A stretch of 64,000 nt of DNA from Cyanomargarita calcarea GSE-NOS-MK-12-04C (GCA_019359595.1 JAHHGZ010000015.1:62001-126000), one strand, 5' to 3'; positions 3,828 to 11,350 are shown, counted from the stretch's first letter. Made by a program: numbers and translations. The notes: a model not told the origin generated them from the sequence alone.

Positions 3828-5171
3828 TTAAAAATCAGCAATTAGCTTGGCTTCTCTGAGGAAAAATTGCAGAACAGTTTCTTCTCTAGAAATAATATCG
3901 ACTCGACCCTGCATTCCTAGTTGAATGGAACACTTCTTATCACCGTGACTCAATAAATACCTCTCTGGCTTAATCGTTACTTCGTAAAAGGCGGGTATAT
4001 TATCTGCTTGTAGTTTGTGAGTATCTTCCGAAATAATACTGACTACTCCTTTGAGGGTACCGTAATCTGGATAGGGACAAGCAGAGACTCGCATATGCAC
4101 CTTTTGCCCCGCTTTTAACCTGTTTCGCTCCTGAGGTGACACGGATGCTTTTACTTGTAGTGGTGCAGCACTGGGTACAATTTGGGCAACTTCCGCCCCT
4201 GTACTGACTGTCTGTCCGGGGTTGCGAATATTCAGTTTGGTGATGATTCCCGAAGCTGTGGCTGTAATCGTAGTTTGCTTGAGGTCAATTTCGACTTGTT
4301 GCAGTTCCGAAATATTACGCTTAAGCTGTTCTCTAGCTTCAATTTGTTGCTGGATTAAAGCTTCTCGTTCTTTGGTTAGCGTTGCAAGATTTGCTTGACC
4401 GCTAGCTTGTTCTAAAGCAACTCTTTCTGTCGCAATTGCAACAGGGGCATTACTAGGATTGAGAGCAGCCTGCGTACGTTGCAGTTTTGCTCTTGCTGCT
4501 GCAACTGCCTGCTCTTGCTGCTGCATATCTAATTGAGCCTCATCCAATTGATTTTTCGGGAGCGCTCCAGCTTGTGCAATAGGTTGATATCGGGCCAATT
4601 TCACCTTGGCTGCACCCAAAGCCGCTTTTGCCGAATTGAGCATTGCTGAAGCTTCTTGAACTTCAGCACTAACTGTTATTCGTCGCTCTTGATACTCCCG
4701 ATGGCGACCGCCCAGTTCTGCTTTTGCAGCCCCAACTGAGCGATTGATGCGCTTAGTTTCTCCATCGAGTTGCCGATTTAACATACTAATTTGAGTATTA
4801 ATCTGTACCAATTGCAACCTAATTTGTTCGATACTGCTTTCCAATTGATTCTTTTTGGTTTGCAATTGCGAGTTATCGATAGTCGCGATCGCATCACCTA
4901 GTTTAACCCGTTGATTTTCTTTCACGGCGACATTTCTCACCGAACCGGATGCTGCTGCTTGCACTAACCGCAATTCTCCTGTCGGACGCACGGTTGCTTC
5001 TCCTTTGATGGTGACTCTATATTTGATTACAGATGCAAGTGCAAGGGTAATTCCGACAATTGTGACGGTTATAATTCCGCCAATGCTCGTCCACCGACTA
5101 ATAGGTGGAATAAATTCGCTGGCTTCGATTGAGGGTAGTGACTCTGGGTTGGTGTTTGAAGAAGTAATCAT
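3828..5171 (-). CDS. HlyD-family membrane fusion protein (exporter adaptor)
   Basis: 447 residues. A short cytoplasmic N-terminus is followed by one membrane span (~residues 30-48), a lipoyl-like half motif (ATVRPTGELRLVQAAASGSV), a long alanine/glutamine-rich coiled coil (~95-290), the second lipoyl half (TITATASGIITKLNIRNPGQTV) and a beta-barrel domain. This is the adaptor architecture that bridges an inner-membrane ABC exporter to an outer-membrane channel in type I secretion. It lies 68 bp downstream of the C39 ABC exporter on the same strand and is inferred to be co-transcribed and to work with it. No TolC-like gene is present in the window. Confidence 0.9.
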   Translation of the reverse strand: MITSSNTNPESLPSIEASEFIPPISRWTSIGGIITVTIVGITLALASVIKYRVTIKGEATVRPTGELRLVQAAASGSVRNVAVKENQRVKLGDAIATIDNSQLQTKKNQLESSIEQIRLQLVQINTQISMLNRQLDGETKRINRSVGAAKAELGGRHREYQERRITVSAEVQEASAMLNSAKAALGAAKVKLARYQPIAQAGALPKNQLDEAQLDMQQQEQAVAAARAKLQRTQAALNPSNAPVAIATERVALEQASGQANLATLTKEREALIQQQIEAREQLKRNISELQQVEIDLKQTTITATASGIITKLNIRNPGQTVSTGAEVAQIVPSAAPLQVKASVSPQERNRLKAGQKVHMRVSACPYPDYGTLKGVVSIISEDTHKLQADNIPAFYEVTIKPERYLLSHGDKKCSIQLGMQGRVDIISREETVLQFFLREAKLIADF

Positions 5172-5239
5172 AAAAATAAACGAACCGCGTTCACGTAGTG
5201 GAGCCTAGCGCTTAGGTGCAAAGAAAGAAGAGAAAAAAT

Positions 5240-7426
5240 CTAAAATCGTGCGGTTTTTACCAAACCATTTGTTAATGGGGTAATTTTATTTAGGAAACCT
5301 AAGTGGTCACCTGTTTGGTGGCGTAAATCATCGGGAGTACCTTGGATTTTCATCCGTCCCTGCTCTAGCAGGATAATCCAATCAGCTTTTTCGATAACGC
5401 TAGGACGATGACTAATTAAAATAGTGGTTTTTCCTTGGCGGTGATTGAGAAGTTGGAATAGTACTTGCGATTCGCTTACCGGGTCTAACGCACCTGTAGA
5501 CTCGTCCATGATTAAGATGGGTGGGTCAGTGACAATAGCGCGAGCGATCGCCAACCGTTGTTTTTGCCCTCCCGAGAGATTTGCTCCAAATTCTCCTAAA
5601 ATTGTTTGATATTTGTCAGGTAATTCGCTGATGAATTCGTCTGCACCGGCTATCTCGCAGGCTTTGACAACTTGGTCGAATGTAACATGGGGGTAGCTAA
5701 AGCGGAAATTGTCAATAATGGAGCGACTCCAGAAGTGAGGTTCTTGGGGTACAAGCACGACACAGGAGCGCAAGCATTCTAAAGAAAGGTCTTGCTGGTT
5801 ATAGGAACCATAGCGGATATTGCCAGATTCTAGGGAATATAATCCAGCTAGTAATTTAACAAGAGTGCTTTTTCCACAGCCAGATTTTCCAATTAAGGCG
5901 ATAACTTGACCACCTGGAATCTTCAAGGAAAAATCTTGCAGCAAGTCAACTCGACCGGGATGATGGAAGTTGAGAGATTTGCAGGTAATATCTGCTGTAC
6001 CCGAAATTTCCACCCAGGCTTTTTTTGAGTCATTTTGGGATTCTGGAGTAGCATCAATGACTTCGTTTAAACGCTGGATGACTACCCCAGCTCTGATAAA
6101 TTCATCTACTAAGCCGATAGCGGAACTCAAAAACCCAAGAAAATTACTGCTCATGCCGTTAAATGCTAGTAATTGACCGATGCTTAATGTTTTGTTAATT
6201 ACTAAGTAGCTACCTAACCAGAGCAAAGCAATGCTTGTAAAGGAGGAAAAAAGTTTGGTAATTGTGCCGCTATATACCCCCAGTTTCATCATGCTCCAGT
6301 TAAGCCCAGCAAGGCGACCATAACTGCTTTGGTACTCTTGCCAAGCTTGAGGAGTTGATTGGGTAGTTTTAAGCACTTGTACTCCGCGAAATGTTTCGAC
6401 TAAAAAACCTTGAGTCTCGGTACCTAGAACAATTAAATTGCGAGTTTTTTGCTGTAAAGCAGGAAGAAATAGCAGGTTAATCAGGGTGACAACAACAAAG
6501 GCAGTAGCAGATGCTAAGGTTAGTTGCCAACTATAGAAAAGCATAAAGCCCAAGGAAACAATTGCTACAAAGAATTGACTGGGCAAACCAAGAACAACTT
6601 GGGAAATAAGTTCATTAATGGCATCGACATCAGCTATTCGACTAACAACTTCTCCACTGCGCCGTCCTTCAAAATAACTTAGGGGTAAGTGTAATAGTTT
6701 ACGCCCGTACTCAAAAATTAGCCCTAATTGCAGCCTATTTCCAAAATGACCGATTAGAAACGATTGAACTAATCCGATTAGACTCTCGAACAAATTCATC
6801 ATAACTACTCCAATGGCTACAGTAGTCAGCAATTGAGTATCTCCCCGCACCAGTACATCATCAGTGAGCAACTGCATCATAAACGGAGAGGCTAGGGATA
6901 ATAGACCAATGGCAATATTAATGGCGGTCGCTTGAAATAAAATGTTGCGATAGGGTAAGACTCGCACTAAAAACCGCCCAAAACCGCCTATTTTATCTTC
7001 GGATTGTTGAACAAATCGGCTATCATCAGGTTGCAATAGCAACATAATGCCATTGCCCCAACCGTCAACTAACTCCCTATGGCTCAAGTAACGAATGCCA
7101 ATACTAGGGTCTGAAACAACATATTTTTGACGTTTTCGACCATACAGTACAACCCAGTGATTACCTTTCCAGTGAATGACTGCAGGTAGGGGAATTTGGT
7201 CGAGGCTGCCAAGCATTTCAGTTCCAGCTTTGACCTGACGAGCGTTAAATCCTAAGGCTTCGGCACCTCGATATAGCCCTAGTAAAGTGGTTCCCCTCGA
7301 CCCCGTACCCACTGCTTCTCGCACGCGGCTGATAGCAAAAGTGCGTCCGTAATGTTTAGCAACGGTAGCAAGGCAAGCAGCTCCGCAGTCTTCTTCCGTG
7401 TGTTGAAGTATACTTTGGTAACGCAT
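5240..7426 (-). CDS. C39-peptidase-containing ABC exporter (PCAT)
   Basis: About 728 residues from the ATG at 7426; the frame is open to 7498, but MRYQSILQHTEEDCGAAC is the classic start of a C39 peptidase. The peptidase triad is visible: Cys14 in DCGAAC, His90 in NHWVVLY and Asp106 in SDPS. Next come six membrane helices and a complete ATPase with Walker A GKSGCGKST, signature LSGGQKQR, Walker B LIMDES and H-loop ISHR. Such exporters cut double-glycine leaders and export the cargo through the inner membrane. The leader-bearing crystallin gene 1.4 kb upstream on the same strand is the obvious candidate substrate, with the HlyD adaptor immediately downstream. Confidence 0.93.
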   Translation of the reverse strand: MRYQSILQHTEEDCGAACLATVAKHYGRTFAISRVREAVGTGSRGTTLLGLYRGAEALGFNARQVKAGTEMLGSLDQIPLPAVIHWKGNHWVVLYGRKRQKYVVSDPSIGIRYLSHRELVDGWGNGIMLLLQPDDSRFVQQSEDKIGGFGRFLVRVLPYRNILFQATAINIAIGLLSLASPFMMQLLTDDVLVRGDTQLLTTVAIGVVMMNLFESLIGLVQSFLIGHFGNRLQLGLIFEYGRKLLHLPLSYFEGRRSGEVVSRIADVDAINELISQVVLGLPSQFFVAIVSLGFMLFYSWQLTLASATAFVVVTLINLLFLPALQQKTRNLIVLGTETQGFLVETFRGVQVLKTTQSTPQAWQEYQSSYGRLAGLNWSMMKLGVYSGTITKLFSSFTSIALLWLGSYLVINKTLSIGQLLAFNGMSSNFLGFLSSAIGLVDEFIRAGVVIQRLNEVIDATPESQNDSKKAWVEISGTADITCKSLNFHHPGRVDLLQDFSLKIPGGQVIALIGKSGCGKSTLVKLLAGLYSLESGNIRYGSYNQQDLSLECLRSCVVLVPQEPHFWSRSIIDNFRFSYPHVTFDQVVKACEIAGADEFISELPDKYQTILGEFGANLSGGQKQRLAIARAIVTDPPILIMDESTGALDPVSESQVLFQLLNHRQGKTTILISHRPSVIEKADWIILLEQGRMKIQGTPDDLRHQTGDHLGFLNKITPLTNGLVKTARF

Positions 7427-7534
7427 TTTGGAGTTAGGAATTAAAGAGGGAAAAGGGGGTTTTAGATGGGAATTTAGGCATCTCCTGAAATATGCCACTT
7501 ATGGGAGTGGGGTCTGTGACTCCCAGATAGGGAA

Positions 7535-7723
7535 CCTACCGTGTACACACAAGTCGTAAAAATTTCTTCTTCGTGTCCTTTGCGTCCTTCGTGGTTAAAA
7601 ACATATATTCTTTTATTCTTTTTTAACCACGTAAGCGAAGCGCTCTTGAAGGGTAGGACACGAAGAAAGAAAAGAATAAGCCTTGGAGAGTAACAATTTT
7701 AGGACTTGTGTGTACACCGTAGG
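7535..7723. mobile_element. MITE-like near-palindromic element
   Basis: About 189 bp with no ORF. The outer arms contain a perfect 15-bp inverted repeat (GTGTACACACAAGTC at 7541, its complement ending at 7717) that extends outward to CCTAC/GTAGG with one mismatch. Internal segments also pair: CTTCGTGTCC with GGACACGAAG, and GTGGTTAAAAA with TTTTTAACCAC. The whole unit could fold into one long hairpin. It fills the gap between the exporter and dioxygenase genes and resembles cyanobacterial miniature transposable elements. No clear target duplication was identified. Confidence 0.65.
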
Positions 7724-7754
7724 ATAGGGAACAGGGAATAGGAAAAACTGCTAC

Positions 7755-8711
7755 CTATTCACTGTTCCTTTCTTCGATGACATATTCGGGGTGCGATTCT
7801 TGGAAAGGCACATTCCAAACACTGCTGTTAGGCCAGTTCCGTAAAATTGCCTTAGGGTGTTCAAAATTGCCATGACGAACTTGAAGAGACCAGCGCGGAT
7901 AATTACTGCGATTAGTTCCACTGGCGTGTAACATTAAAGTGCTGAAGACCAGTACATCCCCTGAGAACATCGGCACGCGGATGCGGGGAAACTGACTCAG
8001 TATCGAGTCGTCGGGAATTGTTGCGCTCGCAGCATCTTCTTCTCTTTGCGGTAACTGCGGGAGAACCCCCATTCTGTGTGACCCCGGTGCAACATGCAAA
8101 CAACCGTTTTCTTCTCCTACGTCCCGCAATGGAATCCAGTACACCAGTGCGTCTTCAGAGTCTTGAATGACTGGGTAATCCTGATGCCACGGGAATAAAT
8201 AGCGATCGCCGTAAGGATAATCAACTCGTAAGTCGTATGACATATGAACCATGACTGTCGAAGTGGACATTAGTTTTTTAGAAAGACGCACTAGCTCGGA
8301 ATGTACATTGATTTGCTGAACGGACAGCAGGGTACGACAGGCATTTGCAATCACTTCGCTGTGGGCGTACTCTAGCTGATTTGATGTTTGGTAATTAACG
8401 ATGTCTTTGGACATGAGTTCATTTACGTATGCACTTTCTAACTGCCTTAATATCTGTAACCCGTCATCAAATTGAGAAAGTTTATCTACTAAGGTTTCTT
8501 TTTTTAGTCCCGTTCGTTGCATTCTCAGAGAAATAAGTTGTCTGATGTCGTGGTGAATTAAGTCAATTTCTCCATTGTTTAGTAGCCCTTTTGCAAGGAA
8601 ACAACCAAATTCATCTAGTAACTGTTGAGCTAGTAGGTCAGACTCAAAGAGGTCATTTTCGTTGGAAATTGAGTAATCTACTAATAAATCCTTGGCTGAA
8701 ATGTTTTTCAT
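7755..8711 (-). CDS. Phytanoyl-CoA dioxygenase (PhyH)-family protein
   Basis: About 318 residues from the ATG at 8711 (the frame extends to 8753). It carries the Fe(II)/2-oxoglutarate facial-triad motif: the HxD pair lies in FPWHQDYP and the distal His probably in MLHASGTNRS, with the arginine further on (PRWSLQVRH). PhyH-family enzymes hydroxylate diverse substrates including lipids, small molecules and peptides. Its place between a leader-bearing small protein and a leader-cleaving exporter suggests, but does not prove, a role in modifying the exported product. It could equally be an unrelated metabolic enzyme. Confidence 0.85.
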   Translation of the reverse strand: MKNISAKDLLVDYSISNENDLFESDLLAQQLLDEFGCFLAKGLLNNGEIDLIHHDIRQLISLRMQRTGLKKETLVDKLSQFDDGLQILRQLESAYVNELMSKDIVNYQTSNQLEYAHSEVIANACRTLLSVQQINVHSELVRLSKKLMSTSTVMVHMSYDLRVDYPYGDRYLFPWHQDYPVIQDSEDALVYWIPLRDVGEENGCLHVAPGSHRMGVLPQLPQREEDAASATIPDDSILSQFPRIRVPMFSGDVLVFSTLMLHASGTNRSNYPRWSLQVRHGNFEHPKAILRNWPNSSVWNVPFQESHPEYVIEERNSE

Positions 8712-8834
8712 GTGTTTTTCGCAACATATCAAAATTAATAGTAATATTGACAATTGGAATTAAATTTCAACAAAGAAGTAGGGGCAAGGCATAATTCGCC
8801 CCTACAAACTGCAAGAATAGATTAAGAAAATCGC

Positions 8835-9185
8835 TTAACCGATAGACTGCAAGGAGGAAACTTTATTATTGAAACCTGGAGGTAAGAATTTACGATCCTG
8901 TCCTGGTCCTACATCGAAAGAAGCTCCTTTATAGTTAGGTAAGGCATAAAATCGCCATACCTTTTTGTTAATTTTCCCGTCTACTACAACCGATGAAGTT
9001 CTATTGTCAAAATCGCCCAGTCTCGTTTGTCCTTCATTGATTTCTCGGCTTGCACCTTTAAACTTTGTACAATCGTACAACGTCACATCTGCACCACCGG
9101 AAACAGATGCTGCAGATTCATGGGAAAGGTCTTGTACGGCTTTGATAGCATAGAGGTCTTGGGATTGATTGCTGATATTAGACAT
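8835..9185 (-). CDS. Beta/gamma-crystallin protein with double-glycine leader
   Basis: 116 residues. Residues 32-116 form one beta/gamma-crystallin domain of two Greek keys. Each carries a (N/D)(N/D)xx(S/T)S calcium-binding signature: DNRTSS and NNKVSS. The aromatic/glycine Greek-key starts YDCTKFKG and YALPNYKG are also visible. Residues 1-31 look like a bacteriocin-type leader ending DLSHESAASVSGG, the cleavage signal for C39 peptidases, so the mature product would begin ADVTLYDC. SD-like GGAGAA precedes the ATG. It heads the minus-strand run leading to PhyH, PCAT and HlyD. I infer an exported Ca2+-binding protein; its biological job is unknown. Confidence 0.88.
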   Translation of the reverse strand: MSNISNQSQDLYAIKAVQDLSHESAASVSGGADVTLYDCTKFKGASREINEGQTRLGDFDNRTSSVVVDGKINKKVWRFYALPNYKGASFDVGPGQDRKFLPPGFNNKVSSLQSIG

Positions 9186-9859: not shown

Positions 9860-11350
9860 TCAGACCTTTTGCCTTTCATTGTTTGGCAACCTCTTACACT
9901 TGAAGGGCAAATCAAGAATTGACATATTTCGTAAGCCAACTTTCGATAATCGTTGGCTTTCACCTTTTATACCCGTAAATAAGCTTTCAGTTTTTAATTT
10001 TGAGTTTTGAGTCAATTCTGATTGATGAAGTTCTGCTAAGTATCCTGTAACATAGTCCATTATTAAAGGCTCTAAACTAAATCCGATATGACTCTGCACA
10101 ATCATGGAACGGCGCATTAGAGAATTAATTGCATCTAAAAGCGATCGCTTTGTGGTGATAGTCGCAACTTTTTCATTTAACTGTTCTAGGGTGACTGGCT
10201 CTCGATTTATTGCCAGCCATTGTATTACTTCTTGTTCTAGCAAAGACAATCTGTTAAATTGATTCTCTAGGAGGTTGCGAATATCTTCAAAAAGTGCAGT
10301 TTCACACTCAATATATTCCAGCACTGTTGCAATACTGCCATTGAGAAATTCTTGGGTAGCGGTGGCGACTACTTTGAGTACTAACGGATTTCCGCCATAG
10401 TGTTTAACAAGTCTGTTCCATTCGGCCTCGGTACCTGTAAAGTTTCCTTTGTATTCAAATAGTTCTCGTCCTTCGCTAGGGAGCAGTCCATTTAGCTGTA
10501 GCGAGCGTACGGGTAAGCGTTCTCCTTCGAGTAAGGCAATTTCTCTTAACTTTTCTCGACTGGTTAGTAACAAGCAACTTTGGTGCGGTACGTTTCCAAT
10601 CGCCTTAAGCATTTGCCCGTAAACATCATACCCCGTTTGGTAGGCTCCTACTTGACAACCGCTATCAAGGATAGTCTCAGCATTATCCAAAATTAGCAAA
10701 CAACGCTGTTGCTTGAGACATTTAAATAGAGAAGTTAGTTTTTTGTCTAAGCTCGCGGGTATTGCTGTATCTTTGCCTTGTATGGGCAACAGAAATGAAA
10801 GAATACTAGTTAGCAAATCCTCTAAGGATGGCGCATTTTGCAGCGATCGCCAAATAACGACCTCAAACTCAGTTTGAATTTGCAGTCCTAATTTCACCGC
10901 AAGGGAAGTTTTGCCAATCCCACCTATTCCCAACACTGTTACTAACCGACAATTGTCTTCTAAAATCCACTGTTGCAGTTGCGCCAATTCTTGCTCTCGA
11001 CCAAAGAATACCGATACATCAACAGCTTCGTCCCAATCCTGTGCTTTGTTTGCTACTTCTTCCTGATGTGAGATAGGTGGAGCAAAATCTCCTTGAGATA
11101 ATTCTAAGCTAAACGCTCGCAGAAAATATTCTATAGATAGCTTATCAACAGCTTCTTGTCGCTTGAGAATGCGAGAAATAGTTTGCAGCGATAGTCCAGT
11201 GCGCTCGTTCAATTGTTCGCGAGTAAAACGCAATCCCCAGTTGTGTTCTGATTCTGCTAAGAGCATTGCTTGCTGGAGCTTTTGCCATCCCTTGGTAGTG
11301 AGAATAACACCGCGTCCCCGTTTCGATTTAGGAGTACATTTATCAGACAT
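9860..11350 (-). CDS. HTH-NB-ARC STAND-type regulator, probably C-terminally truncated
   Basis: 496 residues. An N-terminal helix-turn-helix (residues ~41-66, REQLNERTGLSLQTISRIL) is followed by an NB-ARC ATPase with Walker A GIGGIGKT (141-148), Walker B CLLILDNAE and a sensor-like LLTSREK. STAND ATPases normally end in a repeat sensor (WD40, TPR or pentapeptide). Here the protein stops soon after the winged-helix region with an atypical tail, so the sensor is probably lost. The NB-ARC part closely resembles that of the large CHAT-NB-ARC-WD40 protein at 47-51 kb (shared DVS(V/I)F(F/Y)GR and NCRL(V/I)(T/S)V), so the two are paralogous modules. Confidence 0.8.
   Translation of the reverse strand: MSDKCTPKSKRGRGVILTTKGWQKLQQAMLLAESEHNWGLRFTREQLNERTGLSLQTISRILKRQEAVDKLSIEYFLRAFSLELSQGDFAPPISHQEEVANKAQDWDEAVDVSVFFGREQELAQLQQWILEDNCRLVTVLGIGGIGKTSLAVKLGLQIQTEFEVVIWRSLQNAPSLEDLLTSILSFLLPIQGKDTAIPASLDKKLTSLFKCLKQQRCLLILDNAETILDSGCQVGAYQTGYDVYGQMLKAIGNVPHQSCLLLTSREKLREIALLEGERLPVRSLQLNGLLPSEGRELFEYKGNFTGTEAEWNRLVKHYGGNPLVLKVVATATQEFLNGSIATVLEYIECETALFEDIRNLLENQFNRLSLLEQEVIQWLAINREPVTLEQLNEKVATITTKRSLLDAINSLMRRSMIVQSHIGFSLEPLIMDYVTGYLAELHQSELTQNSKLKTESLFTGIKGESQRLSKVGLRNMSILDLPFKCKRLPNNERQKV

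What the first reader, a model, noticed from the sequence alone, without database searches (positions are those of the whole stretch)
3828..9185. Double-glycine-leader crystallin with PhyH enzyme, C39 exporter and HlyD
Four minus-strand genes form a logical export line. The crystallin N-terminus ends SVSGG before ADVTLYDC; the exporter has the C39 triad Cys14/His90/Asp106; HlyD follows. Beta/gamma-crystallins with bacteriocin-like leaders and a neighbouring dioxygenase are unusual and may be a type I-secreted, possibly hydroxylated Ca2+-binding surface protein.
Basis: partly seen in the sequence, partly recalled or inferred. Interest (0 to 1): 0.8.

Follow-up and report, generated by a model that had tools for sequence, protein, structure and literature searches.

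The report
Bacteriocin-style export of calcium-binding crystallins
Cyanobacteria appear to send small calcium-binding proteins of the eye-lens crystallin family out of the cell with a cut-and-export pump normally used for bacteriocins; the neighbouring hydroxylase gene is a rare, lineage-specific extra whose role is unproven.

Summary
In detail: a beta/gamma-crystallin precursor with a double-glycine leader, a PhyH-type 2OG/Fe oxygenase, a C39-peptidase ABC exporter with an intact Cys/His/Asp triad, and HlyD, all on the minus strand. The export interpretation is well supported. GG-leader crystallins sit beside this particular exporter clade (about 70-92% identical to ours) in 27 of 32 loci examined, from 25 genomes in at least two orders, often as tandem arrays. 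The canonical Ca2+ motif [ND][ND]xx[ST]S is about 47-fold enriched over shuffles. The same exporter clade carries other small GG-leader proteins elsewhere, and cargo type switched at least four times on the exporter tree. The real unit is leader + exchangeable small domain + C39 exporter + HlyD. PhyH is not a conserved part: it occurs here and in Scytonematopsis contorta only (1 of 391 order genomes). Its closest other relatives (56-58%) lie directly behind lasso-peptide B and C genes, so a RiPP-style hydroxylation of the precursor is plausible but unshown. I read it as a new variant of the known cyanobacterial "group III bacteriocin" cluster, exporting a Ca2+-binding crystallin domain; no record of such cargo turned up in the papers searched.

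The parts
8835..9185 (-). beta/gamma-crystallin precursor, 116 aa: 31-aa double-glycine leader (MSNISNQSQDLYAIKAVQDLSHESAASVSGG) + 85-aa mature domain
   Evidence: PF00030 34.6 bits; gamma-crystallin and M-crystallin hits; alignment of 23 precursors with invariant E23, G30, G31
9093..9185 (-). leader peptide, predicted cut after Gly31
   Evidence: leader-only profile finds 27 places in 8 genomes; apart from one 15-residue fragment (G176:C82:121336) all lie in crystallin ORFs
8991..9008 (-). Ca2+ motif 1, DNRTSS (residues 60-65)
   Evidence: motif defined in PMC3551895
8853..8870 (-). Ca2+ motif 2, NNKVSS (residues 106-111)
7755..8753 (-). PhyH-type Fe(II)/2-oxoglutarate oxygenase (the Met at 8714 is the likelier start); HxD...H metal ligands and the distal Arg conserved; accessory, lineage-specific
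   Evidence: PF05721; invariant H178/D180/H264/R275 in alignment A4; rarity
5240..7498 (-). C39-peptidase ABC exporter (PCAT); likely start at 7426
   Evidence: PF03412, PF00664, PF00005; full-length alignment to PCAT1 4ry2; triad
3828..5171 (-). HlyD-type membrane fusion protein
   Evidence: PF13437, sub-cut-off TIGR01843
7551..7722 (.). dispersed palindromic repeat inserted between PhyH and the exporter; not part of the system
   Evidence: 55 matches in own genome; hairpin z -8.75; the S. contorta gap is only 55 bp

Best explanation
A dedicated peptidase-containing ABC exporter with its HlyD adaptor, and a TolC-type protein encoded elsewhere, cuts the 31-residue double-glycine leader off a small beta/gamma-crystallin and sends the 85-residue domain out of the cell. 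Outside, at millimolar Ca2+, its two N/D-N/D-x-x-S/T-S sites bind calcium and stabilise or complete folding; the protein then most likely works as a Ca2+-binding matrix or surface component. Shown here by sequence: crystallin family, Ca2+ motifs, leader, catalytic triad, conserved linkage, purifying selection. Inferred: cleavage, export, calcium-driven folding, surface role. PhyH is an accessory of this lineage; if it acts on the precursor it must do so in the cytoplasm before export (inferred, about 35%).
For: GG-leader crystallins lie beside this exporter clade in 27 of 32 loci; of the five others, two lie at a contig end and one on a 6-kb contig. Seven leaderless crystallin loci had none. 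Tandem crystallin arrays directly upstream of the exporter, e.g. 5 crystallins-C39-HlyD in L045 and 6 in L046. The leader profile is confined to crystallin ORFs in 8 genomes. Ca2+ motif 57 observed against 1.2 expected. C39 triad aligned to PCAT1. dN/dS 0.07-0.28 for all four genes against S. contorta. TolC-type genes present. Some Nostocaceae relatives carry crystallins with an N-terminus that looks like a Sec signal peptide (L137-L139), an independent hint of extracytoplasmic location.
Against: No experiment. The exporter clade is often paired with non-crystallin cargoes, so it is not crystallin-specific. About a dozen of 48 crystallins lack any strict Ca2+ motif, so Ca2+ binding is not universal. 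AlphaFold models were useless.
Confidence: 0.78

Rival explanations
1. A secreted antagonist: the crystallin fold here is a bacteriocin, killer-toxin-like protein or protease inhibitor rather than a calcium-binding structural protein.
For: Double-glycine/C39 export is the classical bacteriocin route, and such clusters are named bacteriocin clusters in cyanobacteria (PMC3140520). Weak PF03995 Inhibitor_I36 match (20.7 bits, cut-off 21.1). Paralogous arrays; the crystallin is the fastest-evolving of the four genes (71% identity against 86-92%).
Against: No immunity-like gene recognised beside it. dN/dS of the mature part 0.25, not diversifying. Ca2+ motifs kept in most relatives. Inhibitor_I36 is under its cut-off. 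The cyanobacterial GG-protein system with a tested function, EbfG1-4/PteB, serves biofilm development (PMC4997328).
Confidence: 0.17
2. PhyH is a true partner: a RiPP-style peptidyl hydroxylase acting on the crystallin precursor (for example beta-hydroxylation of Asp/Asn) before export.
For: Same position between crystallin and exporter in two lineages with dS about 0.65; PhyH dN/dS 0.11; intact metal ligands. Closest other relatives (56-58% identity) follow lasso B (PqqD + Transglut_core3) and C (Asn_synthase) genes and a lasso-like precursor with a YxxPxLxxxG leader motif (L039-L041). A lasso-peptide 2OG hydroxylase acting on the linear precursor is known (CanE; PMC9266682).
Against: PhyH absent from every other exporter-clade locus examined; 1 of 391 order genomes. 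No shared substrate motif seen. A more distant relative (41%, L042) sits by methyltransferase-like genes, so the wider family is not RiPP-specific. Solved relatives act on small molecules. No leader-binding RRE (PqqD-type) domain in the four proteins.
Confidence: 0.35
3. Chance neighbourhood: the crystallin is cytoplasmic and the GG is incidental.
For: Crystallins without a leader exist in cyanobacteria (L058, L059).
Against: Conserved leader and exporter linkage across at least 25 genomes.
Confidence: 0.03

Closest known systems
Cyanobacterial group III 'bacteriocin' clusters (Wang et al. 2011, PMC3140520)
   Same: Short-type C39 ABC exporter without a CAP_ED domain, HlyD, upstream arrays of GG-leader precursors of about 30-130 aa
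   Different: Mature part is a recognisable Ca2+-binding beta/gamma-crystallin domain; the word crystallin does not occur in that paper; antimicrobial activity untested; PhyH added in this lineage
EbfG1-4 / PteB of Synechococcus elongatus (PMC4997328)
   Same: Small GG-motif proteins secreted with the help of a C39 peptidase, acting outside in community behaviour
   Different: EbfG proteins are not described as crystallins there; no oxygenase described
PCAT1 (Clostridium thermocellum), PDB 4ry2
   Same: Full-length match, same C39-TMD-NBD layout and triad
   Different: From a Gram-positive and without HlyD (own knowledge); different cargo
Microbial Ca2+-binding beta/gamma-crystallins (M-crystallin, Hahellin, caulollins)
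   Same: One domain of two Greek keys, two N/D-N/D-x-x-S/T-S sites
   Different: Those carry no known GG leader or C39 exporter (own knowledge)
CanE lasso-peptide hydroxylase (PMC9266682)
   Same: 2OG/Fe oxygenase acting on a ribosomal precursor; relatives of our PhyH lie in lasso loci
   Different: Substrate class here would be a folded-domain protein; homology to CanE not tested; no B1/RRE partner here

Membership tests
Beta/gamma-crystallin | PF00030 match over the curated cut-off | tested here: met
   34.6 bits against 25
Beta/gamma-crystallin | Two Greek-key Ca2+ motifs N/D-N/D-x-x-S/T-S | tested here: met
   DNRTSS and NNKVSS
Beta/gamma-crystallin | Double Greek-key fold | tested here: inconclusive
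   AlphaFold model with 2 sequences, pLDDT 36
Peptidase-containing ABC transporter (PCAT) | C39 Cys/His/Asp triad + TMD + NBD in one chain | tested here: met
Peptidase-containing ABC transporter (PCAT) | Cleaves a GG-leader substrate | not testable with these tools
   needs the purified peptidase domain
Cyanobacterial group III bacteriocin cluster | Short C39 ABC + HlyD + GG precursors, no CAP_ED, no second ABC exporter | tested here: met
Cyanobacterial group III bacteriocin cluster | Antimicrobial product | not testable with these tools
   the name rests on genome mining (PMC3140520)
CTB family bacteriocin NF038167 | NCBIfam model match | tested here: not met
   no NCBIfam hit for the crystallin precursor; some other cargoes of the clade give sub-cut-off hits
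Peptidase inhibitor I36 | PF03995 over cut-off | tested here: not met
   20.7 against 21.1
PhyH oxygenase | HxD...H metal triad and distal Arg | tested here: met
RiPP tailoring hydroxylase | Modifies the neighbouring precursor | not testable with these tools
   mass spectrometry needed
RiPP tailoring hydroxylase | Conserved linkage with the precursor | tested here: inconclusive
   two lineages only; nearest other relatives are in lasso loci

The most novel reading that the evidence does not exclude
The exporter clade is a general platform that secretes interchangeable small beta-domain proteins rather than bacteriocins, and in this lineage a lasso-type PhyH hydroxylates a whole crystallin domain before export: a RiPP-like modification of a Ca2+-binding protein.
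Probability: 0.2. Interest if true: 0.85.

Novelty: new variant of a known kind. Interest (0 to 1): 0.62.

Why it matters
Double-glycine/C39 export is nearly always read as bacteriocin or signal-peptide export. Recurrent pairing with Ca2+-binding crystallin domains suggests that many 'orphan bacteriocin' clusters of cyanobacteria secrete small Ca2+-binding domain proteins for the sheath or matrix, and it gives microbial beta/gamma-crystallins, whose roles are mostly unknown, a testable place outside the cell. It also ties a PhyH family to lasso peptides and, once, to a crystallin.

Tried and rejected
AlphaFold of the crystallin (2 sequences) and of PhyH (5 sequences): pLDDT 36 each, not used, no fold search made. 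NCBIfam for the crystallin: no hit. PADLOC: only generic ABC-type hits to the exporter. Promoter and terminator scans: no more than in shuffles. Literature searches for crystallin with double-glycine, peptidase C39 or cyanobacterial exoproteome found no relevant paper. Four conserved genes as one unit: rejected, PhyH is not conserved. PhyH as proof of hydroxylation: rejected as unproven. Chance GG: rejected.

Full report
OBSERVATION. The 116-aa crystallin matches PF00030 above cut-off and PDB gamma-crystallins and M-crystallin; its two canonical Ca2+ motifs are DNRTSS and NNKVSS. The exporter has C39, ABC membrane and ATPase domains; it aligns end to end with PCAT1 and the Cys14/His90/Asp106 triad is in place. 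HlyD and PhyH are clear Pfam matches.

LINKAGE. A protein search in 245 genomes of the order, then a profile built from 23 precursors in 391 genomes of the order and 291 of the class, found many GG-leader crystallins. I fetched 32 loci with a GG-leader crystallin (window and S. contorta included). In 27, from 25 genomes, an exporter of the same clade (about 70-92% identity to ours) lies close by, normally directly downstream and followed by HlyD where the contig goes on. Of the five without it, two crystallins lie at contig ends (L054, L057), one on a 6-kb contig (L133), and two are orphans in a genome that also has a linked cluster (L049, L050). Seven loci with crystallins lacking a GG leader (L058-L060, L137-L139, L245) had no such exporter in the stretch fetched. 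Three of those begin with what looks by eye like a Sec signal peptide (L137-L139). Arrays occur: five crystallins in L045, six in L046. Three loci (L242-L244) come from genomes outside the order. These counts come from a sample of genomes and from ORF calls made here without curation; the exporter search scored only two candidates per genome, so it undercounts.

LEADER AND CARGO. A profile of the 32-residue leader alone found 27 places in eight genomes; apart from one 15-residue fragment they all lie in crystallin ORFs. Of 26 further loci with exporters of the same clade but no crystallin, nearly all have one to four other small GG-leader proteins close to the exporter: an SH3-like domain (L176), a family 'YEVFTIRNKTxYN..LDG' (L178, L191, L193-L196 and others) and Asp-rich proteins (L182, L184, L192). 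On a tree of 57 exporters, crystallin against other cargo changes at least four times on well-supported branches (quick method, no bootstrap). So the exporter-HlyD pair looks like a platform whose cargo is swapped while the leader type persists.

CALCIUM. In 48 crystallin ORFs the strict motif [ND][ND]xx[ST]S occurs 57 times against 1.2 expected in shuffled sequences. The motif is the canonical Ca2+ site (PMC3551895). About a dozen members, mainly in the arrays of L045, L046, L048 and L126, have no strict motif, so some paralogues may have lost Ca2+ binding. Several microbial crystallins are disordered until Ca2+ binds (PMC3551895, PMC8639718); by analogy with RTX proteins the cargo might be exported loosely folded and fold outside. 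This is inference and was not tested.

PHYH. The PhyH gene is intact and under purifying selection against the S. contorta orthologue (dN/dS 0.11; exporter 0.07, HlyD 0.11, crystallin 0.28) but is found in 1 of 391 genomes of the order at E 1e-40 and in no other exporter-clade locus fetched. Its nearest other relatives (Nostoc, Komarekiella; 56-58%) directly follow a PqqD+transglutaminase-like (lasso B-type) gene, an asparagine-synthase (lasso C-type) gene and a 52-54-aa lasso-like precursor, e.g. L040:7026-7184...YHAPKLYELGNLNKVQGYWGYWDDWGGYYS. That these are lasso loci is my reading of the domains. A lasso 2OG hydroxylase that acts on the linear precursor is known (CanE, PMC9266682), so action on the crystallin precursor is plausible. 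It is not shown; solved relatives act on small molecules and a 41% relative stands near methyltransferase-like genes.

MECHANISM, marked. Shown by sequence: families, motifs, leader, triad, linkage, selection. Inferred: cleavage after Gly31, export through exporter-HlyD-TolC (TolC-type genes exist elsewhere in the genome), Ca2+ binding outside, matrix or surface role. Speculative: hydroxylation.

KNOWN KIND. The organisation equals 'group III' cyanobacterial bacteriocin clusters (PMC3140520), where precursors were mostly unclassified and crystallins are not mentioned. The GG-protein system with a tested function in cyanobacteria, EbfG, serves biofilm formation (PMC4997328), which favours a non-toxin reading. 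I file the system as a new variant of that kind.

Noticed in passing
window 7551-7722: Dispersed palindromic repeat (55 matches in the genome, hairpin z -8.75) sits between PhyH and the exporter; the S. contorta gap is only 55 bp, so it inserted later or was lost there.
   Followed up: yes
window 8778-8805: Terminator-like palindrome GTAGGGGCGAATTATGCCTTGCCCCTAC between crystallin and PhyH; might let cargo be expressed above the exporter, or be a dispersed repeat.
   Followed up: no
L061:14447-14617: GG-leader mini-protein with KYDKYDKYDK repeats upstream of another C39 exporter of the same genome.
   Followed up: no
L062:11575-12617: Three GG-leader glycine-rich peptides upstream of a further C39 exporter (61% identical) in the same genome.
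   Followed up: no
L039:6820-10984, L040:7026-10984, L041:7027-10984: Lasso-peptide-like loci (precursor, B, C) ending in a PhyH oxygenase in Nostoc and Komarekiella.
   Followed up: partly
L191:746-1102, L193-L196, L178, L185, L189: Widespread GG-leader protein family 'YEVFTIRNKTxYN..LDG' beside the same exporter clade; no Pfam or over-cut-off NCBIfam match for the two members scanned (L191, L178).
   Followed up: partly
L137:8680-9048, L138:2053-2421, L139:8938-9282: Close crystallin relatives with an N-terminus that looks like a Sec signal peptide instead of a GG leader.
   Followed up: no
window 9860-11350: NB-ARC/NACHT-type STAND ATPase upstream of the crystallin; no PADLOC match.
   Followed up: no
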